Of a stretch of 64,000 nucleotides of DNA, positions 21,520-50,631 are shown piece after piece. The notes below the pieces were generated by a model, which did not search any database, was not told where the DNA came from, and saw only the letters and a program-made list of their open reading frames with translations. Every line of letters begins with the position of its first letter. Position 1 is the stretch's first letter. The position numbers were made by a program, and so were the translations under genes. Source of the DNA: Hypomyces perniciosus (taxonomy: Eukaryota > Ascomycota > Sordariomycetes > Hypocreales > Hypocreaceae); assembly GCA_008477525.1 (NCBI GenBank), contig SPDT01000007.1:6820001-6884000 (forward strand), in the 5' to 3' direction.

Positions 21520-21535
21520 TGTATACGAAGTAGGT
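21520..21535 (+). repeat. Right 16-bp target duplication of the LINE
   Basis: Identical to 14422-14437. It contains the TACGAAGTA word that is frequent in the gene-bearing part of the window, so the LINE landed in one such word. Confidence 0.85.
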
Positions 21536-23404: not shown

Positions 23405-24061
23405 GGTAGTGGCCACTGGCGCATGTCGATCCGCATACCATACCGTATGGCCATGATACAGCACCAATCTTCACGCTCAAAAATTACAAAACAAACTTCA
23501 CAGCTCTGCGGCCGCTGTCACATTTCAACTTCTACTATGTGAGCAACTTGGCTCCTCTTGTTTGTCAACTACGACTCGGCACACGAGGGCAAGGATACCG
23601 TAGTAGGAATGGCGTATGGAATTTGAAGACCGTAATACCCCTAAAAGGTCCCCTGGAGTTAGTCCATTGAGGTGCGGTGTTCGGTATTGTACGGTGATTC
23701 AAATATTTAAAGGCTATGTACTGCTTGAAAACCGGTTAGGTTTGGATGTCCCAACTTGAGTTTCTAAGAAGAAAATCCCTTTAGGAAGATAAATATAGAT
23801 TGACCGATATGAAGATTATGTTTATGTATAAAATCACGTTCATGATCTGTTCTCATTATTTTTTGGCGGGACAAGAATGCCCATTATGCTGTGAGGTCAT
23901 GATACCGGCCTTATTCATTATTGAGTCAACGGTATGTAGCCTGTAGTAAAGAACAGGTAAAAGTAGTCTTACACCTGATTCGTGATCAAAACGGCGATTG
24001 AACTGGTAGTGATATTGTCCATTATATATCGGCAAATTAGTGGAGGGATAGGCGAAGGGAC
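23405..24061. other. Transition to AT-rich DNA, nothing recognised
   Basis: GC content declines over this stretch toward the LTR element starting at 24,067. No gene or repeat was identified. TGTAC at 24062-24066 is the left target duplication of element E. Confidence 0.4.
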
Positions 24062-24066
24062 TGTAC

Positions 24067-24467
24067 TGTGACGATCCGGGTTGATTCTCAAGGGATAAAC
24101 CGAGGTTCGTGGGTTTATATTAACAGAGTGGTCAGGGATAAATACTAAGTAGGGTAATGTAGTTATAATTCTGTAGAACAGGTAGTTCTAGTGAATGCAA
24201 TTTATTAATAACTGTCTAAATAACTATACTAAACGATTATAACTTATCCAGTCGTATATATAAAGGGAATATATAGTGAATGTATTTAAATTGTATATAG
24301 ATTACGGTTATATTAAATTACCTTAAGTTACACTTTATAATCTAAGTGATCTGTAGCTTACAGTAATCCAAATAATCCTTCCTGATTGGTCAGTTATTCT
24401 ATTATTCTTCTGGGGTATATATTGCCCTAGACCCTTTATACGGCTATACAAGGGTTAGGTTATAATA
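24067..24467 (-). repeat. Left (3') LTR of element E
   Basis: 401 bp, same length as 50226-50626. Differences seen are mainly C/T and G/A transitions. Left flank TGTAC. Confidence 0.88.
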
Positions 24468-27400
24468 TAATATCCACCTCCTGTTAGTTTTGTCTTTAAG
24501 ACTTTGCCTGCCTTATATAAATACTATACCTCCCTTTATAAGTATAATATTCTTTTTCCTTTTCCTTTTTATATGCGCGGTACTAATAATATAAGTTGTA
24601 TTAAAAAGACTTATTCTTTAAAAACCCTTTAGCATTTAGCCCTCGCGTCTTTTATCAAAGAATTAGGTTTTAAAATTATACCTTATTTATATTATCGTTC
24701 CTATAGGTATACTTACAAAATAATAGATAGGGTATTTTAATGCTAGGAGTGCGTTTAATAAAGTTATTTTTACAATAGTTTTAGGGTACTAGTAAATACT
24801 TATAAATGTTTTTATCTTTTTATATTTTATCTTTTTTTTTTAATTCTTTAATGTCTTGGATTACTTTAAAGTATAAGCGACTAAAGGCATAGGAATAAAA
24901 GGCGGAGCTTAAATTGGCCGAACTGTATTGCAAGTGTTTTAAGGCTTTAGCGCAGCTAATTTACCTTTATACCTAGTGCGAGGCATTAATAATAAAAAGA
25001 GCAAAAATAGTAAATCTTAGGGTAAGAAGTATAGATAAGTTGGATAAGGCTAAATGTTATAAAGTAGAAGCTGCTATTAATATATATTCTTTTAGGGCTG
25101 CCGATATAATTAACTAGACTGCCTTTAGGCCACTTAATCTATTATTAATAGGCTAAGATTCTGGTGGAATTATTACAGAGTTGTCTAGGAGTATTCAAGG
25201 TATTCTTTAAATTCCTAAGACTTATATTCCTCTTTATAATTTTTCTACTTTATTAAATATTAGCGTTTATTATCTTTTATTTTTATAGCTTTAATTTTTT
25301 TAACTTTATTGTTTTTTAATTGATAGGATTTTAATTAAATCTATAATTAGTCTATTTTCTAGTTTATTTTATAATAATTTTTTAAATAGTAAAATATAAA
25401 ATATCAAGTAAATCTAGATATTGTTGAATAATATAAATTTATAAATAACTTTTAAAATAAATTTTTTAACTAAATAAAGTTTAAGTTTCGTTAAATTTAA
25501 TTTATTGCTTAGTTATATTGTTTTAATATTTATAGTCTTTTTTTTAATAAACAATAGTATAGGTAGACTATATCTCCCTTTTTAAAAATTAATCCTTTTA
25601 ATCTATATTTATTAATATACCTTTTTATACTTTTTTATATAAAATAAAAGTATACTTACATTTCTTTATATAACTGCTTTATATTTTCGGCTTTAATTTA
25701 TACTTTATTAATATATAGGCCTTTCTTTAGCGCTTTATATATATCTGGTATAAAGCTGTAGTTAATATATATAAGGCTAAGTCTAGTAAACTTTAAAATA
25801 TTACTGTTATAGGATATTTATACAATTAATAGCTTCTTCATCTAATTATTTTAATTAAAGTTAATATAACTTCTTAAATAAGCTTTCATAATCTAATTAA
25901 TATATTCTATCTATTTATCTGTCTATAGGTAGTATATAGTATTAAGCTTGTAATTTATACTTAACTGATTTATAAATGCTTCTTAGAATTTAAACGCGAA
26001 AGTTAATCTTTAATTAAAAATAATTTTAGTTAAAATTATATAGTTAACTGTAATAAATTGTAAAAATATATAAGCTAGTGTCTCTGTATCTATTACTTCT
26101 TTATATAAAACGAAGTAAAAGTATTTAATAAATTAATCTATAATTATTAAAATACTATTATATTTAATCTTTATTTTTAATTTAATAGATAGTGGTAGTT
26201 TAATAATAAAGTTTAATAAAATCGATTCTTATAGTTATTTTAATATTAATAAAGGTTAAAGTTTACTGTATAGTTTATATCTTAAAGGTTTAACTGTTTT
26301 ATATATTATATAGTAAGAAATAATATTTTATATTACTTTTTTAAGCCTTTTAAACTTAAAATACCTTTATATTTATTTGCAGGTCTTGCAAATACCTTTA
26401 TATTTATATACTAGGTATTAATAAACTTTTATAACTATATTTTTTAAAGTTTATTTAAAATCTAAATCTTTTTATTTTATTATTAAATTCCTTTTTTATT
26501 AAACTTTAGATCTTTTAAAAATTTATTATTATCTTAGGTAATATAATATTCCTTAATATATTAAAGTATAGTATTATTACTAGATATTTTATATATAGCT
26601 TAAAGTGCTATTTATTAATAATATCCTTTAAAGGTTTATTTTAAGATTTGCCTAGTATATTTAATCTTTCTTTAACTATTATAGGTATAGGCTAGTCTTT
26701 TACTGCTTATACTTTTAATAAATCTATATAGATTTCTTTAAAGGTAATAATATACTTTAGGAAAATGACTTTCTATATATAGAATTTATATTTCTCTAGT
26801 TTTATAAGTAATTTAGTATTTTATAGTATCTGTAATACTTTATAGATATATACTTTATATTCTTTAAAGGTATTTAAAAAAATTAAAATATTATTTAAGT
26901 AAATAACTATAAAGATATTAAAGTATTTTTTAATATATTATTAATTATTTTTTAAAATATTGCGGGGGCGTTAATAAAATTAAAAGGTATAACTAGGTAT
27001 TTAAATAAGCTATACTTAATTTAAAATACAGTTATTTATTTATATCCCTCTTTAATTTAGATAAAGTTATAAGTGCCTTTAAAGTCTAGCGCTATAAACT
27101 ATTTTTTCTTATATAGTTTATCCTGCAATTCTATACTTAATAGTAGTAAAGTTTTATCTTTAATAGTAGCTTTATTAAATTATTACTAGTTTATAATTAA
27201 TTATAATTTACCCCTTTTTTTAGTATAAATATAACTAGATAGCCTACTGTTAATAAAAAGGGTTAGATATACCTTTTAGCTGGTATATTATTTAAATAAT
27301 TATATAGGCTTTTAACCTTTTCTTTACTTAGATTATAAATCTTATAAAAGGTAATGCTTATATTATCTTTAAGCTTAATTATATAGTTTTATTAACTGTA

Positions 27401-28458
27401 TTCTAATAGTTTAATATTAAATATTTCCTTAAACAGTTTATTATACTTTTAATATTCTTTAAAGATGTCCTATAATTATTTTAATAATACTGCTATTTTA
27501 AGGTTTTTTATTTTAAGTATTTTATTAATATTATTAAATACTTTTTATAAAAAGGCAATTATTTTTTAGGATTTATTTAATTTTTCCTTTTACTTTATTT
27601 AAGTTTCATTTTTAAGTAAATTATTTCTATTATTAAATTAAAGGTAACTTTTTTAATTTTTTTCTTTAATATACTTAAAGGTTTTATATAGGATTTACGC
27701 CCTATAGCTAAAGCCTTTTTAATAGTTTTAATTATTAAAGAAGCTTTACTATTACACTAATAAAGCTAGCCTTTCTTTTCATTAATATTAAGGTTACTGT
27801 ATTTTAATTAAAGATAACCAAGAATAATATTATATTTATTAAGATTCGCTATATTATAAAGAACTACTCTTTTATATTTAGCGATTTTAAGTTTAAAATA
27901 ATTAATCTTTTACTTAATCTATCTATTATTATATATAAAGGCTCCTCTTTTTATTTAATAAAATTAATATAATTTAGTTTTCTTTTTTTAAACTAACTAT
28001 AAGCGATTTATAGTTATAGGTGCAATAAAATTACCTATTACTCTACTATCTATTTATATATATAGCCAATATCCTTTAACTATTATCTTTAACTTAATAT
28101 AGTAAATCTTTATTATTACTTTTATTATCTAATATTTTAAAAGATATAATTTATTAATTATTACTTTATAGCCCTTTTATAAGTAATATTAATTATTTCT
28201 TAATTTTCTTTTTTTTACATAGATTTTATAGTTAATTAAAGTTCTTTAAAGTAAATGCTACCTTCTTTTATTATAAGCGGTCCCTTTATAGGTAATAAAG
28301 TTAAACTAGTTTTAATACAGCTCCTTTATAATCTAATTAATCTTTTTATCTTTTAAAGCAGGTTTATACCTTATATACTTCTGTATTTACTATTCTTAAA
28401 GTTTTTCCTATAGGTAAATAATATATTTATCTTTTTAATAGTATATATAATCTAGCAA

Positions 28459-28630
28459 TGTAACAGCACCAACCATAACGCAATATTAACGCCCTATTAT
28501 ATAAGCCCTGGTTATATAACTAGGCCCTAGCGCGTTCCTAGCTATAGCTTTCTATAAAGCTTTAAGGCTTTCTTGCTCTCTATAGTATAATAACGATATT
28601 TGCCTTAACCTACCTTTCTATACTGTAATA
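28459..28630 (+). repeat. 5' LTR of element AD (172 bp)
   Basis: Begins TGTAACAGCACC and ends CTGTAATA. Same length as the three other copies of this LTR (47703-47874, 29367-29538, 41912-42083). Left flank AGCAA. Confidence 0.9.
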
Positions 28631-29366
28631 GTTTATGCTGTCCTTTAATTTAGCTGCGCTATTATAAGGTATATATTTAATTAATTATAAATTCCCTTAA
28701 ATCCCCCTTTATTCCTAAACCTATAATAATACCTTTATAGTTTAGCCTTTATCTTTGAAACCCTATATTTATAGGAAATTAATTATAAGCGAGATTAATA
28801 TAAATACCTTAAACCTTACCCTGTAGCTTAATTTGGCCTAATAGACTATAGTTTTAACTATAAAGTTAACGCTTTTCCCTTTTCTCTTTAAAACCTTATA
28901 AAAATCCAGTATTAATAGTAACTATATATATTTAATAAATGTAATTATTAAAGATAATAACCTTTATTATTAATTTTATCTCTTTAGCTAAATAATAAAA
29001 AAAGGCTTAATTTAATAAAAACAATAAAAATAAACCTTTAAATAGGAAATCTTAAAGTAGGCAGTTAAAAATTAAAACTTTAAAGTATAAATTAAAGTTT
29101 AGATTAAAGTTTTAAATATAGCTTTACTACTAAGCCTTAGAAATAATAACCATTTTAGCTGCTACTAAATTAAAGACTTTAAGCAGTTTAATAGTAAATA
29201 AAAAAATATTATTAAATATTAATAAAAATATATTAACTAATATTTTTAAATTAATATTACTTTTATAAGTAATTAATTAATTTTCTCAATTAAATTTAAA
29301 AAGGTTTTATATATTACAGGCCTTTTAAAGGGAGATATATATTAATTATAATAAAGAAACTTTAAT

Positions 29367-29538
29367 TATTACGGCACAGAAAGGCAGGTTAAGGCAAATA
29401 TCGTTATTATACCGTAGAGAGCGAGAAAGCCCTAAGGCTCTATAGAAAGCTATAGCTAGGAACGCGTTGGGGCCTGGTTACGTGACCGGGGCTCACGTAA
29501 CAGGGCGTCAACATCGCGTCACGGTCAGTACTATGACA
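29367..29538 (-). repeat. 3' LTR of element CB (172 bp)
   Basis: The least mutated of the four 172-bp LTRs: retains GGCCTGGTTACGTGACCGGG and CATCGCGTCACGGTC. Left flank TTAAT. Confidence 0.9.
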
Positions 29539-29962
29539 GTACCCCCCCCCTTTATTACGCTATTCAGCCGCGAATAGCTATATTGCTCGCATAAATCGAA
29601 ATTCCGGGTAATCCATTTTAATACTTCTGATATAAAGGTAAATGGGGCGAATTATATAGTTTTTAGTGTTAGTAACGTATAGTTTAGTTGTAGGCTTTGG
29701 CGCAGTATAGTCTTCGGTTAACGCTCCGCAGGCATTGGTTTCTTTCTAGCTATTTCCTCCTTTTCCTCTTTTATAATTCCTTTCAGTGCTTATCGCAGTA
29801 GGCCCAGCTTTTCTAGGTTTCTCTTATAAAAGTCTTATATTACCCTCTCTTAGCTTTACAGGTCTTTAGCTAGTTGCTATATAGCGGCGTAGTATTTCTA
29901 TTTAACAAAGTAGTGGAATCTATTATTATTATAATAATCTAAAAGCGCTTTAAACTCCCATT

Positions 29963-30188
29963 TATTACAGGCTAGGCCATATCTCCCGGAATCACGACTA
30001 TACCGAATCCGGAAATACGACCAATACTAGACCGCTTGCCTAATTAGGAAACTACCTCGGCTACAACCCTATACGCACAACTATATAACGTATATATAGC
30101 TAGTATAGAGCTTCCTTCCTTTAGCTATAGATAGACAATACAGAGGTGCCTTAACTGCGTGCTTTCCAGTTAGGCTATACCTATTATA
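29963..30188 (+). repeat. 5' LTR of the innermost gypsy (226 bp)
   Basis: Starts TATTACAGGCTAGGCC (TG changed to TA) and ends CCTATTATA; the partner reads TGTTACAGG...CCCGTTACA. Confidence 0.92.
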
Positions 30189-32289
30189 TATCTATAGCTC
30201 AGCTACTACCTAGCCAGTAAGTAATGGAACTCTTACTGCAGAAGGAAAATAGCGAATTTCGGAGACTAAGCCTCTAAGGGCGATAATATACAGTCGCGGA
30301 TCAAGTAAGCTATTCTACCTTTACAGGAATCAATAGCTGTATTAATAAGAAAGCTAGACTCTATAGCACTAGCGACTCAGGGGCTAAATAGCCAGGAAAA
30401 TAAGATATTATTTCTTCTATAACCTAAATAAAAACCCGCGCAGGCTGCAATTATAAAGCCTATATTAACCTCTATAATAGAGTTTATATAAACTTCTAGG
30501 GTTAAAAGGAAGCTACTCTTTAATTTATTTAAATTCTTAAAAAAGTAAAAGGAGTATACTATATAGGCGCAAAATATATATAAAAAGCTTAAATTTAATA
30601 AAGAGTTTTATAATAGTAATAAAGAATAGTAGTACTTTATTAACTCCTGCTTAGACGCTATACTTAAGCAGGTAATCGCTACCTTTTATGCGTTAAAAGG
30701 AACTAACAGGAACTATAACCTAGTAGAATTTATGCAATACCTGGACTATACTTATAAAGATTAAAGACTCTAGAACCAAGCTGTATAAAAGCTGCGCACT
30801 CTTAAATAAAGAGATAAAACTTTACTTTTATCTTTCCTTCCCTGCTTTAAATAAAAGCTTTTTAAGGCAGGCAGCGATAACTAGGCTAACCAAGCTAAGA
30901 TTATCTTCCTTAAGGGAGCGTTATCTCTAGAACTATAATTCCGCTTAATAATAGTAGATCTGCCGCTTACTTATAGCGAATAGCTTATTAAAGTCTAGGA
31001 TATTGCTAGCTGCGTTAAACAATTAAATCTAAACTAATAGAATGCAGGAGCCGCCTTAATAGGCTACTCCTAGCAGAAAAAATATAATAAACTTTAACTA
31101 TATTATACTTTAAAGGACTATATATAAGTAGTTAATAAAAAGGGCGATATTTAGATAGGGGGCATAAACCGTATAAAGAACCAGCGCTGACGCAGCTCTT
31201 TAATAAGCGAGGCAGATATTGCCTGGGAGGCTATATATTACTATTGCAGGAAAGAGGGATATATTACCTAGTTTTGCAAGAAAGGCCACAAAGCCTAGGC
31301 GCATTAGGTCCAGATCGCTAACTGTAAGTCTAATAATAATAACCAGTATACTAACAGTAAAGAAAACAGTAACTTTAGCGATAAGTTAAAAGATTAGCTT
31401 TAACGTAAAGTTAGGCGTTAAAGCTTATAAAGGAAGAATTAAAGGGATAGAAGGAGTTTAAAGAGCAAATAACCAGTAAATTAATAACATTATAAGCCAG
31501 AATAAAAAATATACCTTTTACAGCACTATTTAATACTGGCTGTAACCTTTATACTATTATAAACTCCTCTTTTGCCTGGAAATTACACCTTTTATAAATT
31601 AAAATCACTAAAAGGAAGATTAAGACGTTTACCAAGATCTATAAGAAGGTAGAAACTAGCTATATCGCTATTATTTACCTAGATCTATATAGCTATATTA
31701 AATATTAATATGCCTATATAGTAGATAAACTAGATTATAACTTAATCTTTAGTAAGCCTTAGGCTAAGGCTAACTAAATAGTATATAATGCAGCTAAAAA
31801 GGAAGTTAACTATAGAAAAGCTAGCCTATAGCTATAATTTATAAATAAGGAGGAGCCTAGGAATATTAAAGCTATATAAAAAGCCTGGCTTATATTAGCC
31901 TTAATATTGCAAGCAGAATACTACTGCATTAAAAAGAATAGCGAAAAAGAAGTATACTTCCTTTAAGCTATTAGTTTATTTAATATTAAAAAAGCACTCT
32001 AGCCTAAGAAACCTATAGATCCCCAGGAATATATCCCCTTTAAACTATATAAAGAGTTTTATTTACTATTCTTTATAAAAGAAGCTATTAAGCTTTTACT
32101 ATACTGCTTTAAAGTTAATTTATAGATTCTTTTAAAAGCTAATAAATATAGTAAAGAACTAGAACTCCTTTAAGGCCCCTTTTATAGTATATTACGCAAA
32201 GAACTATTAATATTATAGAAGACCCTCCTTGATTTACTTGATAAGGGATTTATTTAAGCTAGCAGCTTAGCTGCCGCAGCCCCTATCCT

Positions 32290-32650
32290 CTTTATTTAGA
32301 AACTTAAAGGAGGAATTTGCTTTTATATAAACTACTGCGCCTTAAACGCAATAATACAGCAAAATTATTACCCCCTCCCCCTTTTTTCTAAAACCCTTAA
32401 TAGCTTAATAAAAGTAAAGTAGTTTACAAAGCTAGATATAGTAGCTGTATTCTATAAAATCAGGGTCGCGAAAGGAGAAGAATATAAAACTGTATTCTAT
32501 ATACGCTATAGCCTATATAAATAGCAGGTAATTCTATTTAAACTTACTAGCGCACGAGCAGCGTTCTAACAGTATATTAACCAGGTATTACGCCCCTTTT
32601 TAAATAACTTTGCGTCTATATATCTCGATAATATCTTAATCTATATCGAT
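32290..32650 (+). pseudogene. Ty3/gypsy reverse transcriptase relic of the innermost element
   Basis: In one frame: NYCALNAIIQQNYYPLPLF, then stop, FTKLDIVAVFYKIRVAKGEE, YKTVFYIRYSLYK, stop, QVILFKLTSARAAF, stop, and YLDNILIYID. The palm motif of gypsy enzymes is therefore present with one catalytic Asp changed to Asn (GAT to AAT). The three stops sit where homologues have Trp or Gln, as RIP predicts. Confidence 0.88.
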
Positions 32651-34909
32651 AGGTTATAAAAGGACTATATAAAGAAGGTCTGGCGAGTTTTACGCGCCTT
32701 CGCTAATACTGGGCTATACCTAGATCCTAGGAAATGTGCATTTATATAGAAAGAGATTAAATACTTTAGGTTTATTATATATACTAGTAAGGGAATTGCC
32801 TGTAACCCTGAAAAGCAGTAAGCTATTAGTAAGTAGCAGGCACCTATAACAGTAATAGGAGTCTGAAGCTTCTTTAACTTTACTAATTACTACCAGATAT
32901 TTATCCCTGGGTTCTCTCAGATAGCCTACCTGCTTATAAAGCTAATTAAAAAAACGGACCCCCTTCTAGTAAAAAGGTATAGAAAAAGCAGCCTTTTAGG
33001 AGCTTAAATGCCTTTTTATTAAAGCCCCTATACTATAAGCTTAAAATCCTATAAAATATACCTTTATTAAAGCAGACTATTTAAGATATACTTTAAGAGG
33101 AGTCCTCTTACAAAAGAATAAAAAAGGAAAACGTTATACTATAGTTTACTACTTATAAAAGCTAAGCCCTGCCAAATATAACTATTTTATTTATAATAAA
33201 GAAATACTGGCAATAATTCGCTATTTAAAAAAGTAAAAAGTAGAGCTATATAGCTGCAACCCCTTTATAGTTATTTTAGACTATAAGAATTTGCAGTTTT
33301 TTATAACGCGCAGGAAACTCTCTAAATAATAGACGCGCTAAGCAGAGTTCTTTTCCCAGTTTGATTTTATAATCCAATATAAGCTAGGCAGTAAAGCAGC
33401 TGCTTTTAATGCATTAAACCGCAGGGAATAAAACCTTTTACTTAATAAAGGCAATAAGCGTAAACTAAGCCGCTATATATAACTTATCTTAGCCGCACCA
33501 GCGATATAGAGATTTAAGGACAGCAATACTAATCTCCCTTTAATATATATATTCGACAGAAATAAGGAACTACAGGACCTATAGAACCTAACGATTTAAA
33601 AGGACTTAATATATTAATAGGTATATACTGCAGTTAAGAAGGAAAAGCGCTCCCTCCCCGCAAACCTTTAATTTAAGGTATAGATATTAGAATATATAAT
33701 CGATAAAAAATAGAGATTAATATTCTGAGACTGTATCTAGGTACTGGCTATAACTGAAAAAGAAGGCAAAACGCTGCGCACTTGTATTGTATAAACAGAA
33801 CACGATACCGCAGTCTTAGGCCACCTAGGTTATAATAGAACCTTAGCTATTATTTCCTGCAGGTTTTTTTAGCTAGGAATTAATAGTATAGTCCGATAAT
33901 TCCTCTGTAACTGCAGTATATATAGAAAAGGAAAAGTATAGAGAAGCTATAAGCGAGGACTCCTTAAACTACTACCTATTCTTTAGTGTATCCGCAGCGA
34001 CTTAGCTATAGACTTTATAGTTAACCTACTACCTATAAGATTAATATAGGTATAATACCTTTAGGTTATTATTAACTGGCTTACTAAAAATATTACCTTT
34101 AAAATAATGGAAAGTATAAAGGCAGAAGTATATATAAAGAGGTTCCTTTAATGCTACTATCAGTTCTATAGGATGCCCTAGTCTATAGTTAGCGACCAAG
34201 GATCTAATTGGACTAGCTGCTTTTAGAGAGCTTTTTATAAATTAGCAGGAACCCAGTAACACTTAAGCACAGTATATTACCTATAGACTAACAGCAGATT
34301 AGAGAGGAGTAACCAAAAGATTTAAATATACTTTAAAGTATATATAGACTACTCTTAGAGCAATTAAAGAGACTTCCTCCTAGCAGCGCAACTAGCTTTA
34401 AATAACTGCAAATACATGGCTATCTAAATAAGCCCCTTTTTCCTTAAGCACGGCTACTATATAGAACCCCTCTAGCTATATATAAAAGAAAACAAAGCTA
34501 TTGGATTAAAGGACCTAGAGGAGAAGGCTGTAAAAGAAATAGTTGAGAGACTAGAAGGAGTAACTGCCTTTGCCTAAGCAGCACTTGCCGCTACGCAACA
34601 ACGCTATAAAGACTCTGCGAACCAGCAGTAAAGCCCCTTTAAAAGATATAAGGTAGGAGATAAAGTCTAGCTATACCTCGGCAACTATAATACTCCCCAG
34701 CCTTCTAAAAAGCTTAATGCCTTATATTATAAATATATAGTAATAAAGGTTATTAGCCTTTATATAGTGGAACTGGGCGTATTAACTGGTATATACCTGC
34801 GATTTTACATTAACCTGCTAAAAAGAGTAGCCGATAACCCTTTTCCAGGCTAGATTTCAGATAACCCTTAACCACTACCGATATAAGTGGATGGCGAGGA
34901 TAAATAGGA

Positions 34910-35145
34910 AATTAAAGAGGTCCTTTGCGCGAGGATTAAGCGGCAAGGTCGCGGCTTTTTCCGCGAAGTATTAATATAGTAGAAAGGATATATAAAGCTA
35001 ACCTAGGAACCAATACACGTACTTGAAGACATAGCAGCCCTCGACAACTATATATCTAAATATAGCCTAATCGAATTTAACGATAGGCCACTTAACAGCT
35101 ATACGCCAGCAAAGCAACGGCGCCTAAGGAGAGAGCCACTATAAG
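34910..35145 (+). pseudogene. Chromodomain-like C-terminus relic
   Basis: After an integrase-tail motif (VGDKVWLYLGNYN-like, with Trp to stop, near 34.65 kb), one frame gives EVLCARIKRQGRGFFREVLI, two stops, KGYIKLT, stop, EP. The stops replace the Trp residues of the chromodomain signature VKWKGY...TWEP. This assigns the element to the chromovirus branch of Ty3/gypsy, which targets heterochromatin. Confidence 0.7.
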
Positions 35146-35157
35146 AAGGGGGGGTAA

Positions 35158-35383
35158 TGTTACAGGCTAGGCCATATCTCCTGGAATCACGACTATACCG
35201 AATCCGGAAATACAACCAATACTAGACCGCTTGCCTAATTAGGAAACCACCTCAGCCACAACCCTATACGCACAACTATATAACGCATACATAGCTAGTA
35301 TAGAGCTTCCTTCCTTCAGCTATAGATAGACAATACAGAGGTGCCCTAACTGCATGCTTTCCAGTTAAGCTATACCCGTTACA
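35158..35383 (+). repeat. 3' LTR of the innermost gypsy (226 bp)
   Basis: Intact TG...CA termini. Same length as the 5' LTR, with no indels in a hand alignment. Confidence 0.92.
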
Positions 35384-36130
35384 CTATTTCTCTTATACTT
35401 TATTTATATTATCTTCTCTTTCCAGTACTCTGCCTTAAATATTCCTTAATTTAGCTTTATTAATTATCTTTTGCCTAGGATACAGTAAAGTGGCTGTCTT
35501 AAGTTACAGGAGGGAATTATATAAGATTAGGAAAATCTTTATGCCTTCCAGCAGGCCAACAGCGCAGGCTTATAGGTATACCTTCGTTATTATATAGGGC
35601 CCTGCCTATTTATTGTCTAGCTTTTTTATTGGCCGGTTAGTCTTTATATTTCGCATATCGATAAAGACTTCCTGCCTAATAGTGTAGACTAGTGATACCT
35701 CTCTCCGCGCGTTCGCGTTTTCTTTATATCTTCTTCCTAAGGCCTCGGCAAGGGCTTTCAGCTATATAATAATACGTTTAAATCGCTCGGCAACAGTATT
35801 AGCGCAGAAAAACTCTCTTTTCTTTACTGTAGAGAGGTTTAGCAGGCAGGGCTATAAAGGCTCTATCCCTAAATAAAGGTTAAAACTATAATTAGCGAAA
35901 AACGGCAATACACTAGTAGTTTTAAATACTATATTATTTGCAGCAAATTCGGCTAATAAAAGCTAATAAGCCTAGTTATCCTAGTAAAAGTTAATAAAAG
36001 CTTACAGGTATTATTCTATACTTATATTAATCCTCTTAGTCTAGCTATTAGTTTTAAAGTAAAAGGCTAATAACTGTTTTAATATAACTTTTAATCGCTT
36101 TAAAAGTTATTTTTAAAATTTTAATATAAA

Positions 36131-36319
36131 CTATATACTGCAGTTTAATATAATATTATTAAGTATATTATAAAGGCAGTAAATCCTATTAATAAATATA
36201 TTAGCTAGCTCCTTTATTAATAGTAAAGTAATAGGTATAAAATAATATATTTTTATAAAGCAGTAGACTACTATTAGTAAATGCTTATAGGTAATATTAT
36301 ATCGGTATAATTTAGGCAA
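36131..36319 (-). pseudogene. Gypsy integrase core relic of element CB
   Basis: A stop-free 62-codon stretch reading YKHLLIVVYCFIKIYYFIPI, then ELANIFINRIYCLYNILNNI. This is the integrase core around the first and second catalytic Asp (EHLLVVVDRFTKxxHFIP...), with Asp-to-Tyr/Asn changes. Homologous to 46316-46537 of element AD. Confidence 0.75.
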
Positions 36320-39300: not shown

Positions 39301-39482
39301 TTACAGTTTATATAATAAAGAAGTCTGAAATTTTATTGGCTATACTCCTATTAGTAAATAAAAGATTCCTAGTAAATAGCAGTTATTAGGTAGTAATACT
39401 AAATCGCTTAATAAAAGCGCAGCTAGCAAAAGCCTAGGGCATATAGCCGCTATCTATTAAAGCTTTTACATTAATACAGACA

Positions 39483-40063
39483 TGTTGAAATAACAAGGTT
39501 ATACTGAACCTCATTTAAGTGCAGCTTCTAGGAAGGTGCACCCAACGCAGCAATAAGGAAACGACTAAGAGTCTAGTTGGGTTAACAATGGATAAACAAT
39601 TGAATTGTAAACGATCTAATAGCTAGAAGCTATAGAATATCTAGTGTATGTGCGGCTGGTGTAGAAGTGAATTGTATGAACAATAGCTTTGTCTTCTACA
39701 ATAGTCCTCCGACTAGATAATAGGAATGCGGCGGCAGAATTGGGTTCGTAGCCCTGTTCCTATTTTCCGCAAAATTTATTTGTATGGGAAATCGGCCAAA
39801 TCGACTCACGGCCATACAAACAGGAAACCATTTTGGTCAGATTTTTCACAATAGCCATTGCGGCCATTGTATTGAGTCTAGGGTAGGCGGGGTAGCTGGT
39901 CCTAGCTCAATTGTTATCGTTGAAGATAACAGAAATTTCCTGACTTACACCGAAGTTCCTCCGGAACTCGGTCCTAGCGTCGGGCCTAATTCCGGGTCTA
40001 GCCAGAATAGGAAGGTTACCCAAATACACTAAAATCTTTACTTTTTAGCCCTCCTTTTTAACA
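39483..40063 (+). mobile_element. Solo LTR 3 (581 bp) with AGACA duplication, inside element CB
   Basis: Starts TGTTGAAATAACAAGG and ends CTCCTTTTTAACA, with AGACA at 39478-39482 and 40064-40068. It is the least mutated of the three copies (keeps CCCAACGCAGCAATAAGG where copy 2 has CCTAACGCAGTAATAAGG), so it is the reference for family ends. It is much less AT-rich than the element around it. The open frame at 39784-40032 is within the LTR and is not a gene. Confidence 0.93.
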
Positions 40064-41911
40064 AGACATTATACGCAAAAAACAGTATAGTTTATACCAA
40101 AAAGGATTTACTGTCTATTAATTTAAATCTAAAAGGTTTTCAACTAAAAAGACAGCAGTAAATCTATTCCAGGATAATAATCCTATTTACAGTTAACCTC
40201 TATTTACAACTTTCAGCAAAAGTTAATCTTTTCCCTAGTTCGCGAGTTAAGTCTAGGTTCCCAATAGGTAAATCTAGCTAAACTAAGGTAAACTAAAAGT
40301 TAATAGGGCAGTACTACCATTATTATCCTTATTAATGCTCGGAAAGGGTATATCATTTAAGGCCTAGATTTATAAGTTACCTAAGCATTGCAGGTAATAT
40401 TAACGCGCTACTAGAGTTTAATTATTATACTTTACTAGGCTATTTTATTATTAGCCCCAGGGTATTGCTAGGTTAAGGTATAGCTGGTATAGCTAAACTT
40501 AACAGTTTTAATTTTATATCTAATATAGATTGCCTCAGCATATATTAAACTGCTTTTTCTTATTGCATTTATTAAGGCTATAGCCTGCTTTTTTACAGTA
40601 AAAGCAGAGTCCCTTAGCAATACATTCCTCGCGAAAGACTTAAAGGCAAGGTAGCAAGGCATATATAGTATCCAGTTATATTAGGTCGCCAGCCAGCGCT
40701 AAGGCAGCAGCTTAGTTATTCTGCTAGCGTTAGTAATATTACTATTAGTGCTAATACTGCTACTGTTAATAGCCTTATTAACGCCAGCCTATTCAGGCAG
40801 CGCAGAGGGCGTTATAGTAGGTAACCCTCCTAAAGCCTATTATAGATAGTCTAGTAAAGTTAGCACTACTCAGTAAAGTTAAACTTATCTAGCTTAATTA
40901 CTTAAATCTTTATAGCGTCAGCAAGCTCCTAAAAAACCTTTATCTTTAAGGCCTCTACTATCTACTTAGCAGTTTTGCTGCATTCGCTGCCTAATACAGA
41001 CAACTCTGCCATAAAATTTTAAAAAGGCTTATTCAATATATACAGGTTATTAAAAGACTGCAATACCTTTTAAAAAAGGTTAATCGTTTTATATTACTTA
41101 TTAAAATCAGCGAAAAATACTGCATTAATCTCTTAATACTACTAGGCAAGGTTATTAAAACTCTTAATAATAGTATTAAAGTTTCTTTATTGCAGTTAAT
41201 ATATATCTCCCTTTAAAAGACCTATAATATACAGGATCTTTTTAAGTTTAGTCAAAAAGATTAATTAATTGCCTGCAAAAGTAATATTAATCTAGGAACG
41301 CCAGTTAATATATTCTTGCTAACATTTAGTAATATCCTTTTATTTACTACTAAATTGCTTAGGGTCTTTAGTCTAGCAGCAGCCAGGTAGGTTATTATTT
41401 TTAAGGCTTAGTAGCAAGGCTGTATTTAAAGCTTTAACCTAAGCCTTAATTTATACTTTAAGGTTTTAATTTTTAGCTGCCTACTTTAAGATTTCCTATT
41501 TAAAGGTTTATTTTTATTCTTTTTATTAAGCTAGGCCTTTTTTAATTATTTAGCTAAAAAGATAAAATTAATAATAAAGGTTATTATCCCTAATAATTGC
41601 ATTTATTAGATATATATAGTCGCTATTAATGCTAGATTTTTACAGGATTTTAAAGAGAAAAGGGAAAGGCGTAAACTTTATAGCTAAAACTATAATCTAT
41701 TAGGCTAGGTTAAGTTATAGGGTAAGGTTTAAGGCATCTATATTTATCTCGCTTATAATTAATTTCCTATAAATATAAGGTTTAAGGGATAAAGGCTAGG
41801 CTATAAAGGTATTATTATAAGTTTAGGAATAAAGGGGGATTCTAAAGGAATTTATAATCGGTTAAATATATACCTCGCGACAGTATAGCTAAGTTAAAGG
41901 ACAGTATAAAC

Positions 41912-42083
41912 TATTATAGTATAGAAAGGCAGGTTAAGGCAAATATCGTTATTGTACTGTAAAGAGTAAGAAAGCCTTAAAGCTCTATAGAAAGCTATAG
42001 CTAGGAACGCGTTAAGGCCTGGTCATATAACTAGGGCTCACATAACAGGGCATCAATATCATGTCACGGTCGGTGCCATAACA
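41912..42083 (-). repeat. 5' LTR of element CB (172 bp)
   Basis: Partner of 29367-29538; CpA-to-TpA type changes are evident (CATATAACTAGGG against the partner's CACGTGACCGGGG pattern). Right flank TTAAT. Confidence 0.9.
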
Positions 42084-45000
42084 TTAATACTATTATTGAA
42101 AGTCTTAATAACCTTGCCTAATAATATTAAAAGATTAATATAGTATTTTTCATTAATTTTAATAAATAATATAAAATAATTAATTTATTTTAAAAGGTAT
42201 TATAGTCTTTTAATAATTTATATATATTAAATAAGCTTGTTTAAAACTTTATAGTAAAGTTATCTGCATTAAGCAGTAAATGCAGTAAAACCACTAAATA
42301 AATAGTAAAGGCCTTAAAGATAAAGGTCTTTAAGAGTTTATTAACGCTATAAAGATTTAAGTAATTAAGCTAAATAAGTTTAATTTTATTTAATAATATT
42401 AACTTTACTAGATTATTTATAATAAGCTTTAAAAAGGCGCCTATTATAATGCCCTTTATACTACCTAAATAAGCTAGCGTTAATAAAGCTATTAAGAGCA
42501 GCAGTATTAGTATTAATAGTAATATTATTAATGCTAATAAAATAATTAAGCTGCTGCCTTAACGCTAGCTAGCGATATAATATAGCTAAATACTATATAT
42601 ACCCTACTACTTTCTATTTAAGTCTTTTATAAAGAATATATTACTAGAGGACTTTACTTTTATTATAAAAAAGCAGGCTATAGCTTTAATAAATATAATA
42701 AATTTTTTTTTAATATATACTAAGGCAATTTATATTAAATATAAAATTAAAATCGCTAAATTTAGCTATACTAGCTACGCCTTAACCTAGCAGTACTTTA
42801 AAGCTAATAATAAAATAATTTAGTAAGGTATAATAACTAAACCCTAATAGCGCGCTAATATTACCTATAATACTTAAATAACTTATAAATCTAGGCTTTA
42901 AATAATACACCCTCTTTAAATATTAATAAAGATAATAATAATAGCGCTACCTTATTAATTTTTAATTTACCTTAGTTTAGCTAGCCTTACTTATTAAAAC
43001 TTAAACTTAATTTATAAATTAAAGAAAATATTAACTTTTACTAAAGGTCGCAAGTAAAGGTTAACTATAAATAAAACTATTATCTTAAAATAGATCTACT
43101 ACTATCTTTTTAATTAAAAACCTATTAAACTTAAATTAATAAATAGTAAATCCCTTTTAATATAAACTATATTTTTTTAATATATAATATCTATATTAAT
43201 ATAAAAGCTTTAATAAATAGCAGCTATATATATTAAGCTTTTATTAACTGCGCTTTTATTAAGTAATTTAATATCACTCTTTAATAACTACTATTTACTA
43301 AAAATCTTTTATTTACTAATAAAAGTATAGCTAATAAAATTTTAAACTTTTTTATTATATAAACTATAATTAGTTCTTATAAAAAACTCTGCCTCTTTTT
43401 TATTATAAATATCCCTAATAATATACCTATAATCTTTAGCCTTTTATAGCTAAAAAAATATAATTTTAATATAAACTAGGAAAAGTTAACGATTACTTTT
43501 AAATCCTATTACTGTTATAACTACTATCTTTTAAAAAGTATAGTTAACCCTATATAGGTTTTAATAGCAGTTAAAATAAAAAATAATGTTACTAGAGTTA
43601 ATATAGGGAGTATATATTACTAGCAATTAATAATTAAAGATATTTTAAATAAAGTAAAGCTTAATTTAATTAAATAAAGAATTATACTATATTAATAACT
43701 ATTAGTTAATAATACTTTAAAAGAAATAGACTATAATTTAATTTAAAAGGGGGCCTTTAAACTATATATTTTATAAACCTTAACATTAAATTAAAATTAT
43801 TATATAATTTATAGGTATAGTAAAATTAATAATAAAGAAATATAGGTATAAATGATCTTAAATTAAATATATATAAAACTACTACCTACCTTTATAATCT
43901 ATAGTTAATAATAATAAAGGAAACCTTTATTAAAGCTATTACTATTACTTTTTAATATATTACTTTTATAAAACTAAACTAAATTTTAAAATTAAAAAGT
44001 ATATTTAAATATAGTGGATATATAGATAGTGGCAGCCATAAACTTTATTACCTTTTATTAATAATTATATATCTATGCAATAAAAGTAACCTAAAAAGAG
44101 ATTAATTAAGCTATTAAAACTAAAGAATTAATACCTATTACTTTATTAAAGCTTTTAGATAAGTTTTTCTAATAAATACTTATAGGATAAAGAGACTATA
44201 TTAAAGTAAAAATAGTATTACTTAAAGAAATATATAACTTTATTAATAAATATTACTCTTTAATATAATTAAAAAGATTACAGCTATTAATATTAAGAAA
44301 TTTATAGCAGGGAAATTTAAGTTTATTAAACTAGATATCTTAAAAAAACTACTATCCTGGCTATATAATTTATATAATGCTTTCCTGCTAAAAATAGTAA
44401 ATAAGCTTCCTTTATAATAGGCTTAGGATTATAAAATTAAAATACTGCTAGGAAAAGACCTACTATATTAAAAGAATAGGCTATTTTTACTTAATAAACT
44501 ATAGGTAATAAACAAATAATTACATAATAATTTAGCGAAAAGATTTATTTATAAATTATAAATATAATAGACTACTTTTTTCCTTTTAGCTATAATACTA
44601 AAAGGCAGCGTTTATATTTATTAGAATTATTAAAGGTTAAATAATATTACTATTAAAAATTAATACCTATTACTATTAATCCAGGAAACCTTTAACGCTT
44701 TAAGCTATATAAAGGTATATATAAAATTTAATATTATCGCTGCATTTAATAACCTTTATATTATTAAAGGGGATATATAGAAAATAGTATTTATTATAAG
44801 GTTTAGCCTCTTTAAGATATTAATTATACCTTTTAGCCTTTATAATACACCTATTATATTTTACTATTATATTAATTATATTCTTTATAACCTTTTTAAC
44901 TGTATTTATATAATATATTTTAACGATATCTTTATATATTTATTATACTAAAAGGAGTACTGAAAATATATATGCAAAATAGTAGTTTGCCTTTAAAACA

Positions 45001-46315
45001 CTAGCTTTTAAATTAATATTATTAAATATAAGTTTAAGATAATAAAGATAAAATACTCTAGCTTAATTATTTCTTTAAAGGGATTAAAAATAGATATTAA
45101 AAAAGTTAAGGCTATATTAAATTAGCAATTATTTAAAAGAGTAAAGGACCTATAAAAGTTCTTTAACTTTATTAATTTCTATAATTATTTTATTTAAAGA
45201 TACTTTAAAATAACTGTATTATTAAATAAACTTTTAAAGAAAGATTAATTATATATTTAAAGAGAGAAATAGCAGGAAGCCTTTAATTTAATTAAATATG
45301 CCTTTAAATTAACCTTAGTTTCAGCCCTTTTTAACTATAATAAATAAATAGTCTTTAAAACTAATACCTTTAACTAGGCATTAAGTAGTATCTTATTACA
45401 GTATAATAAAAAGGGTATTTTATACCCTATTATATTCTTTTCCGCAAAGTATAACGCTTAAGAATATAACTATAAGATCTATAATAAAAAACTTTTAACT
45501 ATTATTAAAGTAATAAAAGAATAGCGCCTAGAATTATAAAGCTTATAAGCGTTTAATATTATTATAGACTATAAAAACCTTAAATACTTTACTTTAATAA
45601 AAGCCTGAAATTAACAGTAAATTTAAGAGTTTAAATTCCTTTCTAGCTTTAACTTTTATATTATTTACTAACCTAGCTTTAAAGCTAAAAAGCTTAACGC
45701 TTTAAATAAAAAAGTAGAAAATAGGCCTATAAAATTAAACCCTTTTAATAATTAAATTAAAAACAGGCAATACGCTATCCTTTTATAAAGTTTTTGTAGC
45801 CTTAAAGTTTAGGCGATGTTTTAAAAAAAAGTTTTATTAAATATTAAACTGTCTATAAAGGCTGCCTTTATAACTATAATAATACTAGCAGAAAATAGAC
45901 TAATTAATAACTTAATTGCAGCAGTATATAAATAAAATATTATAGCAAGAGAAATAGTAACTGCGCTTTAAGACTTTAATATCTACTAATAGCTAAAACA
46001 GCTTTATAGAAAACTCTAGATTATAATAAATAACTGCCAAGTAATAAATAATAGAATTTATTACTGAGAGCAGCTTTTTATTCCCTTTAATAATAAACTT
46101 TATATATAAATCCTATTTAAAAACTATTTAAGCAGCTTAGCTAAATACTTAGGCAGGTTTAAAACTTTAAACTTTATTAGCTGGATATATTAATAGCTAT
46201 AGATTTTAAAAGATATTAAAGTATTTATATAAGCCTGTAAACTATATATTAAAATAAAGGCCTCGCGATCTTTACTATAAAGCTTTTTTAACTATTATTA
46301 ATTTTATTTTATATA

Positions 46316-46537
46316 TTGTTAAATATTTCTATTAACTATATTATATTACTGCTTAAATCCTACTACTATAATATTATTTATAAATATTTATTAATAGTAA
46401 TCTATTGCTTTATAAAAATATATTATTTTATATTTATTACTTTATTATTAATAAAAAAGTTAGCTAATATATTTATTAGCAGGATTTACTGCCTTTATAG
46501 TATACCTAATAATATTATATTAAATTATAGTATATAA
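46316..46537 (+). pseudogene. Gypsy integrase core relic of element AD
   Basis: A stop-free 73-codon stretch (YKYLLIVIYCFIKIYYFIFI, then KKLANIFISRIYCLYSIPNN) clearly homologous to the minus-strand stretch at 36131-36319. It is a fossil of the integrase catalytic core with the acidic residues lost, not a gene. Confidence 0.75.
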
Positions 46538-47702
46538 TTTATATTAAAATTCTAGGAATAACTTTTAAAGCAATTAAAAGTTATATTAAAATTATTATTA
46601 GCTTTCTACTTTAAAACTAATAGCTAAACTAAAAGAATTAATATAAATATAAAATAATACTTATAAGCTTTTATTAACTTTTATTAGGATAACTAGGTAT
46701 ATTGGCTTTTATTAGTGAAATTCACTATAAATAATATAATATTTAAAACTACTAGTATATTGCTGTTTTTTATTAATTATAGTTTTAACCTTTATTTAAA
46801 GATAAAGCCTTTATAGCCCTGCCTGCTAAACCTTTTTGCAGTAAAGAAAAGAGATTTTTTTACATTAATGCTATTATTAAGTGATTTAAATATATTATTA
46901 TATAGCTAAAAGCCTTTAATAAGGCTTTAGGAAAAAGATATAAAGAAAACGCAAATACGCAGAGAAAAGTTTTACTAGTCTATACTATTATACAGGAAGT
47001 CTTTATTAATATATACAATATCAAAATTAACTAGCCAATAAAGAAACTAGATAATAAATAGGTAAAGCTTTATATAATAATAAAGGTATATTTATAAGCC
47101 TGCACTATTAACTTACTAGAAGGTATAAAGATTTTTTTAGTTTTATATAACTCCCTTTTATAACCTAAAACAGCTACTTTACTATATCCTAAATAAAAGA
47201 TAATTAATAAAGCCAAGTTAAAGAATATTTAAAGTAAAATATTAAAAAGAGAAAATAGTATAAATAAAATATAAAAGAAATAGGAGTTTAAAGTGCTTTT
47301 AGATTACTATAATAATAATAGATTTTACTACTTTATTAAATAGAAATATTATACTGCTATATAGCAATTAGCTGAAAACTTATAAGGCTAAAAGAGGGTA
47401 ATATAAGACTTTTATAAAAGAAACCTAAAGAAGCTAGGCCTATTGCAATAGGCATTAAAATAAATTATAAAGAAGGAAAAGGAGGAAATGGCTAGAAAGA
47501 AACTAATGCCCGCAAAGCGCTAACTAAAGACTATACTATATTAAAGCCTATAACTAAACTATATATTACTAATACTAAAAACTATACAATTTGCCCTATT
47601 TACCTTTATATCGGAAATATTAAGATAGATTACCTAGAATTTTAATTTATGTAAGTAATATAGCTATTTACAGTTAAATAGCGTAATAAAAAGGGGGGGT
47701 AC

Positions 47703-47874
47703 TATTACAGCACTGACTGTAATGCGATATTGATGCCCTGTTATATAAGCCCCGGTTATATAACCAGGCCCTAGCGCGTTCCTAGCTATAGCTTTCTATA
47801 AAGCCTTAAGGATTTCTCGCTCTCTATAGTATAACAATAATATTTGCCTTAACCTGCCTTTCCGTGTCATAATA
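47703..47874 (+). repeat. 3' LTR of element AD (172 bp)
   Basis: Begins TATTACAGCACTG directly after a GGGGGGGTAC purine tract and ends GTCATAATA, followed by AGCAA. Confidence 0.9.
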
Positions 47875-50225
47875 AGCAATAAATATAAGGTATTATTAGC
47901 TTATTATAAATACTAATCTTATAACTTATTTTACTTATATATAATATACTTTAAGCTATTACACTTTAAATAGTATTATTAATTATATTTAAACCTTTTA
48001 TTATAGCGGAAATACTATTTTATTAATTTCTCTTAGCAGTAAATATAATATCCTTTAAACTTATATCCTTTAAGTCTTTATAGCTAATAATATTCTTTTA
48101 AGGTTTTAGTATTTAATTTAATAATAATAATCTTAAAAGTCTTAATACTATATAGTTATAATTTATTCTTTAAAAGCATTATAATCCTATATTTATTTTA
48201 CAAAGTAAAATAGAATTTTAAACTAAAATACATTATACTTAACTTTCTTTTAAAGTATACTATACACCTATATATAATATAAGTAATCTAGGTTAAAGTA
48301 TAGTATTCTTTATAAATAAAGTTATTTGCGGCGTAGTCTTTTATATATAGAAATATAAAGGCTTTATTTATATAGTTAAAGCAGTTAAAATAGCTTTAAT
48401 AGCTATCTTATTATTAGCTTTATTTTATATATAAAGCTAGTTATATAGGTATAAATTTAATTTATTTTACTATATACTTATAGTAACTTTTTCAATTAAA
48501 TTTAGGTAATATTTATTTAATTTACCCTTAAAGTTATTATTTATAGGCAGTATATTTTCTAATTTTAAAAGTATAGCACTATATAGTAACAGTCTATATT
48601 ATAAAGGGTTATTCTTATCTTTATTATTAAAGTTACTGCTGCTAGTTTATCTTTTATTACCTATAGTAATTTAATTAAGATATTAATAGTCAATTATAGT
48701 AATTACTTATTTATCTAGGATACTATTATCCCTATGTAACTCTATATAATTAAAGTCTAAATTTTATTCTATTAAATTATCTAGGTATAGTAAATACTTA
48801 TTTGCTTTATTTCTTTTAAGAATATCTTTAAAAGTTAAAGATTTAAATTTTAACTAATATCCCTTTTAATTTATTATAAATATTTTTCTAGGTTATTTTA
48901 AGTATTATCTACTTTTATTTTTACTGGATTTATAACTAAAGCAGCTATTATTATAGTATATAGTCTAATTAAGCAATATATAATCAATAGCTTTTAAAAC
49001 TATATTAACTTTTTATTTAGGTTTTTGCGTAGGCTTTCAAGGTTTATTAGTTTTTAGTTTTTATAAAGCTTTACAGTCCTTTAAAAAGTATTTTAGTTTC
49101 TTATAGTTATAATAAATAACTTTTACTTTTCCATTTTAAATAGTATTTAAATTTATTTAATTAAGTCTTTTATTATTAAAGCTAGTAATATATTTTTATT
49201 GCTTTTTGCCTTAATTTATATATCCTTAATATTCATAAATATATCTAAATTACTATTATTCTTTTTTATATCTAAATATAATTTATAAAGTAAATCATCT
49301 ATATTTATATATTTTTTAATAAACTTGACAATATTTTTATTACAGGGGAACTTATAGGCTTCTTTTTAACTTTTAATTTAAGTTTATTATAAAAGCGTTT
49401 AATAAAAGTAAAGGTTTTTTATTTAACTTTAAAAGTATAGTTTTTAAAGTATATAATATAATTAAAGTATTTTCATTTTTAAATTAAATTTATAAATTTA
49501 TTTTCTATAGTATATTCTTTATTAATATTATTAAAAATATTCTTTAACTTTTCTTTAAACTAATTATAACTAATTAATATAGTTTATATATACTTATTAG
49601 TATTAGCTTTATTATTAAGAAAAACCCTTTATATAGGTTTAAACTTTTTTAAGGTATTCCCTTTAAATTATCTAGCAGTTAAAAAAACTTTACTAGTCTT
49701 TATATTAAAGCTAATAAAAAAATAGGTAAAATAGTTATATAATTAAATACAAAATAATTAAAATACTATACTATTTCTAGTAAAGTGCTTAAAGGGTTAT
49801 ATTTTAAGCGATTTTCTTAAATCCCTTAAAGGTTAATTCCTTTTAAGGTTTAGTATAAAGTTTAGTGTAAATATAGGTAGTATTTAATTCTATAAGTCTA
49901 TAATAGCTGCTTACTGTTAATAAATTCCTTATTAAAGTATAGCATTTTTAGCTATTAAATATTAATAATATTATTCCTATTCTATATAGTTAGCTTCTAT
50001 ATATTAAAAGGCTTCCTCTATATAAATATAAAGTTATTCCATTTTATTAACTTTATCTTTATTTTTATATTTACGTATATTATTATCTCTATTATAGTTT
50101 TGTCTTTAATAAAGAGGTAAAGTAAAGGGTAAAGTATTAGGGTTATTAGAAAAGGATACTGCAGTAGATATATTTGCAATATTATTTAGGATTTTTAATA
50201 GCCTTTTAAACAAGAATTATTAATA

Positions 50226-50626
50226 TATAATAATCTAGGTTAATTCTTAAAGGATAAACTAAGCTTTATAGGTTTATATTAATAGATAAGTTAAGGATAA
50301 ATATTCAATAGGGTAATATAATTATAATTTTATAAAATAGGTGGTTTTAGTTAATGCACTTTATTAATAACTATTTAAGTAACTATACTAAACAATTATA
50401 ACTTATCCAGTCTTATATATAAAGGGAATATATAGTAAATGTATTTGGATTATATATAGATTATAGTTATATTAAATTACCTTGGCTTACGCTCCATGAT
50501 CCAAGTGATCTGTAGCTTATAGTGATCCGAGTAATCCTTCCTGATTGGTCGGTCGTTCCGTTGTTTTTCCGGGGTATATATCGCCCTGGACCCTTTATGC
50601 AGCTATAAGAGGGTCGGGTCATAACA
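50226..50626 (-). repeat. Right (5') LTR of element E
   Basis: 401 bp, partner of 24067-24467. Its inner-left half is more AT-rich, while the last 150 bp keep GC (for example CCTTCCTGATTGGTCGGTCG), so the two halves carry unequal RIP load. Confidence 0.85.
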
Positions 50627-50631
50627 TATAC

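What the first reader, a model, noticed from the sequence alone, without database searches (positions are those of the whole stretch)
24062..50631. Four-layer nest of LTR retrotransposons whose insertion order is fixed by target duplications
E (401-bp LTRs, TGTAC/TATAC) contains AD (172-bp LTRs, AGCAA/AGCAA), which contains CB (172-bp LTRs, TTAAT/TTAAT), which contains a chromodomain gypsy (226-bp LTRs, CCATT/CTATT) and a solo LTR (AGACA/AGACA). LTR partners have equal lengths, polypurine tracts lie where orientation predicts, and subtracting inner elements gives internal sizes of about 6.3 kb for E, AD and CB. Directions alternate: minus, plus, minus, plus. The structure converts 26.6 kb of apparent AT noise into a dated series of events.
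Basis: seen in the sequence. Interest (0 to 1): 0.85.

Follow-up and report, generated by a model that had tools for sequence, protein, structure and literature searches.

The report
Nest of decayed fungal jumping genes
In a fungal genome, five retrotransposon insertions sit one inside another like Russian dolls, and most of the order in which they landed can be read from the sequence; it is a clean example of a well-known kind of structure, not a new one.

Summary
Four equal-length LTR pairs (401, 172, 172, 226 bp) and a 580-bp solo LTR sit inside each other, each with a 5-bp target duplication; the two imperfect ones differ by one RIP-type transition. Without excision, other copies show the sites uninterrupted: 7 of 7 fetched E relatives across AD's site; AD and CB, one family in opposite orientation, across the other sites. 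Orientations -,+,-,+ hold. "Dated" is not supported: 133 of 144 LTR differences are transitions and do not follow nest order, so LTR divergence is no clock. LTR transversions do follow it: 9/401, 2/172, 0/172, 0/226; AD has 30-36 private transversions, CB 4-9. Between-copy distances do not separate E from AD. Corrections: E's 6.3 kb is coincidental, since it lacks about 586 bp that 7 of 7 relatives have; the solo LTR is Ty1/copia and hardly RIP-mutated. Host: a Hypocreales fungus. A published wheat-pathogen nest has equal depth and size (PMC4522978). New member of a known kind.

The parts
24062..24066 (.). left target duplication of E (TGTAC)
24067..24467 (-). E left LTR (3' LTR of a minus-strand Ty3/gypsy element)
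   Evidence: RT on minus strand
24468..28453 (-). E internal part 1; RT remnant 26650-27221; about 586 bp present in 7 of 7 fetched relatives is missing at about 26668
28454..28458 (.). left target duplication of AD (AGCAA)
28459..28630 (+). AD 5' LTR
28631..29361 (+). AD internal part 1
29362..29366 (.). left target duplication of CB (TTAAT)
29367..29538 (-). CB left LTR (3' LTR of a minus-strand element), followed by C-run 29542-29550 (polypurine tract on the minus strand)
29539..29957 (-). CB internal part 1
29958..29962 (.). left target duplication of gypsy (CCATT)
29963..30188 (+). gypsy 5' LTR
30189..35157 (+). gypsy internal: Ty3/gypsy relic, 62-70% aa identical to pieces of an unmutated family in the same genome; the region matching that family's weak chromodomain lies within 34287-35138; G-run 35148-35154
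35158..35383 (+). gypsy 3' LTR
35384..35388 (.). right target duplication of gypsy (CTATT)
35389..39477 (-). CB internal part 2 (RT match 36938-38401, match to the relative's integrase C-terminal piece 35579-36055)
39478..39482 (.). left target duplication of solo LTR (AGACA)
39483..40062 (-). 580-bp solo LTR of a Ty1/copia family, hardly RIP-mutated
40063..40067 (.). right target duplication of solo LTR (AGACA)
40068..41911 (-). CB internal part 3
41912..42083 (-). CB right LTR (5' LTR)
42084..42088 (.). right target duplication of CB (TTAAT)
42089..47702 (+). AD internal part 2 (RT match 44604-45731), with G-run 47693-47699 near its end
47703..47874 (+). AD 3' LTR
47875..47879 (.). right target duplication of AD (AGCAA)
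47880..50225 (-). E internal part 2
50226..50626 (-). E right LTR (5' LTR)
50627..50631 (.). right target duplication of E (TATAC)

Best explanation
Successive retrotranspositions into one place on a Hypocreales chromosome. A Ty3/gypsy element E landed first; AD, of another gypsy-like family, landed in E; CB, a second member of AD's own family in the opposite orientation, landed in AD; a gypsy with a probable chromodomain and a Ty1/copia element landed in CB, and the copia element later collapsed to a solo LTR by LTR-LTR recombination. Integrase made a 5-bp duplication each time. Repeat-induced point mutation (RIP: C-to-T, here preferring CpA and CpG) then decayed the copies. Shown: structure, order of E, AD and CB, orientation, the RIP-type spectrum, uninterrupted sites in relatives. 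Inferred: the collapse of the copia element, RIP rather than another deamination process, and that AD's heavier RIP load than CB's reflects age. No function of the nest itself was seen.
For: Equal-length LTR pairs and target duplications. AD and CB read uninterrupted across each other's insertion sites. 7 of 7 fetched E relatives, chosen by me from the list, read across AD's site; in 4 the two alignments overlap by exactly the 5-bp target, in 3 they stop 1-4 bases short and the coordinates agree. RT on alternate strands. Transversions between LTR partners: E 9/401, AD 2/172, CB 0/172, gypsy 0/226; E against CB plus gypsy, Fisher p=0.0037. Three-way comparison over 4,066-4,068 columns: AD-only 30, 36, 36 and CB-only 9, 4, 4 transversions with three relatives in turn, p=0.001, 2e-7, 2e-7 (the relatives are not independent tests). 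AD has T/A where CB has C/G at 822 sites, the reverse at 175. C-to-T from CB to AD by context: CpA 231/315, CpG 153/244, CpT 352/1012, CpC 86/437.
Against: LTR transition density does not fall inward (E 16.5, AD 14.0, CB 16.3, gypsy 6.6%). Transversions between window copies and relatives do not separate E (53-71 in about 4,130 sites, 6 relatives; 62 in a seventh over slightly fewer) from AD (72-114 in about 5,600, 3 relatives), though they set both apart from CB (14-53 in about 4,069, 3) and gypsy (5-14 in about 4,960, 7); such distances measure family age as much as insertion age. GC of one E piece in 11 relatives runs from 0.127 to 0.244, so GC is a poor guide to age. AD's excess of transversions could come from an older sublineage. 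E's polypurine tract is weak. LTR transversion counts are small.
Confidence: 0.96

Rival explanations
1. The arrangement arose by ectopic recombination or segmental duplication between dispersed copies rather than by successive insertions.
For: Many copies of each family exist in the genome, so substrates for recombination are plentiful; AD and CB are 84.5% identical over 4.1 kb in inverted orientation.
Against: Each of the five inserts has its own 5-bp target duplication, and relatives are uninterrupted at those sites. Recombination would not be expected to leave these.
Confidence: 0.02
2. The 580-bp unit is a short non-autonomous element rather than a solo LTR of a long element.
For: It is abundant as a lone unit: 642 first-look candidates, of which 40 were scored and gave 40 rows over at least 577 of 580 bases at 96-100% (window copy included) and 2 partial rows at 91%. 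Of 10 same-strand neighbour pairs under 10 kb among the 100 listed matches (4.1-7.5 kb apart) hold no RVT_2 match.
Against: The other 6 of those 10 pairs lie 5,955-6,040 bp apart and 6 of 6 hold a Ty1/copia reverse transcriptase match, always on the strand opposite to the pattern. TG...CA ends and target duplications.
Confidence: 0.05
3. The solo LTR escaped RIP because it came after RIP had ceased, not because it is short.
For: Its RIP index is 0.22 against 0.93-1.14 for the elements around it; a complete gypsy copy elsewhere (L045) is also hardly mutated (0.19), and 18 rows of its family share one RT score.
Against: Another 580-bp copy is RIP-mutated (L036, GC 0.344), and in Podospora solo/fragment LTRs are mostly spared, likely because of their size (PMC10787394, passages).
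Confidence: 0.2
4. Assembly artefact joining repeat copies.
For: Repeat-rich region; no reads were available to me.
Against: Target duplications match across inserts of up to 26.6 kb; a chimeric join would not be expected to restore them.
Confidence: 0.02

Closest known systems
Nested element clusters of Mycosphaerella graminicola (Zymoseptoria tritici), PMC4522978 (section 8 read in full, other passages seen)
   Same: 78 nested clusters of 7.5-63 kb, 33 above 20 kb; LTR element as base in 49, target duplication verified in 35; RIP-like decay and lower GC. One row, chromosome 9, 26,358 bp, TATGA, base 242 with (49 (263 (623))), has the same depth and nearly the same size.
   Different: Different fungus and families; here two successive layers are one family in opposite orientation, and the order was cross-checked with transversions.
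crapaud LTR retrotransposon of Podospora, PMC10787394 (passages seen)
   Same: RIP-mutated full copies alongside solo or fragment LTRs of high GC; LTR subfamilies with a divergent part.
   Different: A different family; a nest of this kind was not the subject of the passages seen.
Nested retrotransposons of maize (SanMiguel 1996; seen only as a reference-list entry, the rest recalled)
   Same: Insertion order read from nesting.
   Different: Recalled: no RIP in maize, so LTR divergence can serve as a clock there; here it cannot.

Membership tests
Nested LTR retrotransposon cluster | Inner element interrupts the outer one and carries its own target duplication | tested here: met
   5 of 5 insertions, 3 exact and 2 with one transition
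Nested LTR retrotransposon cluster | Outer element is contiguous at that site in other copies | tested here: met
   AD site in 7 of 7 fetched E relatives; CB, gypsy and solo sites by comparison of AD with CB. E's own site was not tested: no strain without E is held.
Ty3/gypsy (E, AD, CB, gypsy) | RVT_1 type reverse transcriptase in the expected orientation | tested here: met
   tblastn with pol pieces of two relatives, which carry RVT_1, RNase H and integrase domains
Chromodomain gypsy (chromovirus) | Chromodomain at the integrase C terminus | tested here: inconclusive
   The unmutated relative has PF00385 at 21.5 bits, below the 25.1 cut-off; the window copy aligns to residues 3-286 of that 287-residue piece at 70%; the one window piece from this region scanned alone gave no family
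Ty1/copia (580-bp solo LTR) | Paired LTRs flank an RVT_2 reverse transcriptase | tested here: met
   6 of 6 pairs spaced 5,955-6,040 bp; 4 further same-strand neighbour pairs at other spacings have none
RIP | C-to-T transitions in repeated DNA with a CpA preference | tested here: met
   CpG is hit almost as often as CpA
RIP | Occurs in the sexual cycle and needs a RID-type methyltransferase (recalled) | not tested
   no cross possible; the gene was not searched for

The most novel reading that the evidence does not exclude
Surviving fungal nests may be enriched for inverted same-family neighbours (as AD/CB here), because direct-orientation nests are lost by recombination; alternate orientation would then be a product of survival among nests, and inverted same-family nests would serve as internal controls for measuring RIP load against transversion time.
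Probability: 0.1. Interest if true: 0.4.

Novelty: new member of a known kind. Interest (0 to 1): 0.2.

Why it matters
It is a clean stratigraphic record: five insertions, most with a known order, in a genome marked by RIP. Because structure fixes the order, it shows that LTR divergence fails as a clock here while LTR transversions still agree with the order, and the AD/CB pair (same family, known order) lets RIP load be compared between an older and a younger copy at one locus.

Tried and rejected
Rfam and tRNA searches of the window found nothing. Pfam on two short stop-free pieces of the gypsy and on one host ORF found no family. The first comparison of gypsy and AD with relatives was wrong for relatives on the minus strand; those 7 of 10 rows (L022, L024, L026, L027, L028, L038, L039) were dropped and redone. 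That the 580-bp LTR belongs to the unmutated gypsy beside it in L045 was rejected: that element has 235-bp LTRs. That E lies inside a further LTR element was not borne out: no row except the window's own covers 21528-24066 (40 of 259 candidates scored), and no row covers 50632-51724 (29 of 1018 scored); both are capped searches. Because E lacks about 586 bp, near the 580-bp LTR plus 5, I considered that the relatives instead hold a copia LTR there: rejected, the copia LTR has no match at those places in L029-L036, and in the 3 relatives examined a pol match runs into or through the stretch.
Full report
What is there. The window is C4:6820001-6884000 of a 44.0-Mb, 23-contig genome. Its left 14 kb has GC of 0.45-0.52, the nest 0.17-0.37 in 2-kb steps.

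Check of the observation. Aligned end to end, the LTR partners have equal length and no gaps: E 401 bp, AD 172, CB 172, gypsy 226. Each insert carries a 5-bp target duplication; those of AD, CB and the solo LTR are exact, those of E (TGTAC/TATAC) and gypsy (CCATT/CTATT) differ by one transition in a TpG or CpA context.

Collinearity without excision. That step was left out and is listed as referred; other copies were used instead. AD and CB are one family in opposite orientation (84.5% identical over the longest block of 4.1 kb), and each is uninterrupted where the other is broken: CB's entry into AD corresponds to 41175-41183 in CB, the gypsy's entry into CB to 47275-47283 in AD, the solo's entry to about 43174-43192 in AD. 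For E, seven copies that I chose from the list were fetched (an eighth stretch, L035, was the window's own flank and was not used). In 7 of 7 the pieces 24067-28458 and 47875-50626 map side by side; in 4 the alignments overlap by exactly the 5-bp target, in 3 they end 1-4 bases short with agreeing coordinates.

Orientation. Reverse-transcriptase matches lie on minus (E, 26650-27221), plus (AD, 44604-45731), minus (CB, 36938-38401) and plus (gypsy, 31379-34280). The window's E lacks a net 586 bp (585 against one of the seven) that 7 of 7 relatives have at about 26668 (arithmetic); in the 3 relatives examined a pol match runs into or through that stretch. E's internal 6.3 kb, equal to AD's and CB's, is therefore a coincidence.

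The solo LTR. A search with the 580-bp unit gave 642 first-look candidates, of which 40 were scored: 40 rows at 96-100% over at least 577 bases, the window included, and 2 partial rows at 91%. A 26-base pattern from it matched 158 places with at most one mismatch; 100 are listed. Among these are 10 same-strand neighbour pairs less than 10 kb apart: six lie 5,955-6,040 bp apart and all six enclose a Ty1/copia reverse-transcriptase match on the opposite strand; the other four, 4.1-7.5 kb apart, enclose none. The window copy is thus best read as a solo LTR of a Ty1/copia family on the minus strand. Its composite RIP index is 0.22, against 0.93-1.14 for the elements around it.

RIP and the clock. 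Of 144 differences between LTR partners 133 are transitions. C-to-T change from CB to AD by context was CpA 231/315, CpG 153/244, CpT 352/1012, CpC 86/437, and from AD to CB CpA 51/157, CpG 23/94, CpT 86/848, CpC 15/262. This is RIP-like, with CpG hit nearly as hard as CpA. Transition density by layer is 16.5, 14.0, 16.3 and 6.6%, which does not follow nest order, so the LTR divergences cannot be turned into dates.

Transversions. Between LTR partners they follow the nest: 9/401, 2/172, 0/172, 0/226 (E against CB plus gypsy, Fisher p=0.0037). In three-way comparisons over 4,066-4,068 columns AD has 30, 36 and 36 private transversions and CB 9, 4 and 4, with L038, L039 and L040 as third sequence; these three are not independent tests. 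Against family relatives the gypsy differs by 5-14 transversions in about 4,960 sites (7 relatives), CB by 14-53 in about 4,069 (3), AD by 72-114 in about 5,600 (3), and E by 53-71 in about 4,130 (6; a seventh 62 over slightly fewer sites). That measure does not separate E from AD, and it reflects family age as well as insertion age. RIP load points the same way for the same-family pair: AD has T/A at 822 sites where CB has C/G, the reverse at 175. Against this, GC of one E piece in 11 relatives runs from 0.127 to 0.244, so GC alone is a poor guide to age.

What remains open. The nest does not order the gypsy against the copia insertion, since both lie in CB. The copia LTR is almost free of RIP and the gypsy is not, which suggests that it came later; but in Podospora most solo and fragment LTRs are spared, likely because of their size (PMC10787394, passages), so a late arrival is not needed. 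The chromodomain of the gypsy rests on a sub-threshold match in a relative (21.5 bits, cut-off 25.1) to which the window copy aligns.

Comparison. Nests of this kind are described for Mycosphaerella graminicola: 78 clusters, up to 63 kb, 33 above 20 kb; one is 26,358 bp long with the same depth (PMC4522978, section 8). That paper also mentions nests in L. maculans, Epichloe and others (passage). The finding is a well-preserved member of a known kind. What is worth keeping is the pair AD/CB: one family, known order, and so a within-locus measure of RIP.

Noticed in passing
window 16779-17358 and 17454-18033: Two more 580-bp copia LTRs in opposite orientation, each with its own target duplication (TACTT, CCTTT), next to an AT-rich repeat (18040-21525); some relatives of that repeat lie beside RVT_1 matches in long open frames, which I take for non-LTR elements.
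   Followed up: partly
window 21377-21525 and 50791-50940: The same roughly 150-bp end of the 18040-21525 repeat, inverted, on both sides of the nest (77.6%); I take them for separate copies.
   Followed up: partly
window 51725-51999, 53177-53449 and on to 64000: An inverted pair of 275-bp LTR-like repeats and further repeat families to the right of the nest; the window ends about 54 kb from the end of contig C4 (length).
   Followed up: partly
L002-L008, L045: A gypsy family related to the window's gypsy (62-70% aa over the pieces compared): 18 rows share one RT score, 17 of them with a 1254-aa open frame; the copy in L045 has GC 0.53 and is hardly RIP-mutated. It looks like a recent burst in a genome full of RIP relics.
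   Followed up: partly
window 24272-24453 and 24503-25031 (E): Most E relatives have no row over these two stretches; the laxer alignment runs through them at about 76%, so E belongs to a diverged LTR subfamily or is a recombinant.
   Followed up: partly
window 469-1833 (-) and 2872-3561 (+): bZIP and aldo-keto reductase genes side by side; locus numbers suggest the same neighbours in Trichoderma virens FT-333 (006377/006378) and T. gracile (001282/001281).
   Followed up: no
window 59744-59819 and 60091-60166: A 76-bp direct repeat, 92% identical, beginning TGTCA and ending TGACA.
   Followed up: no
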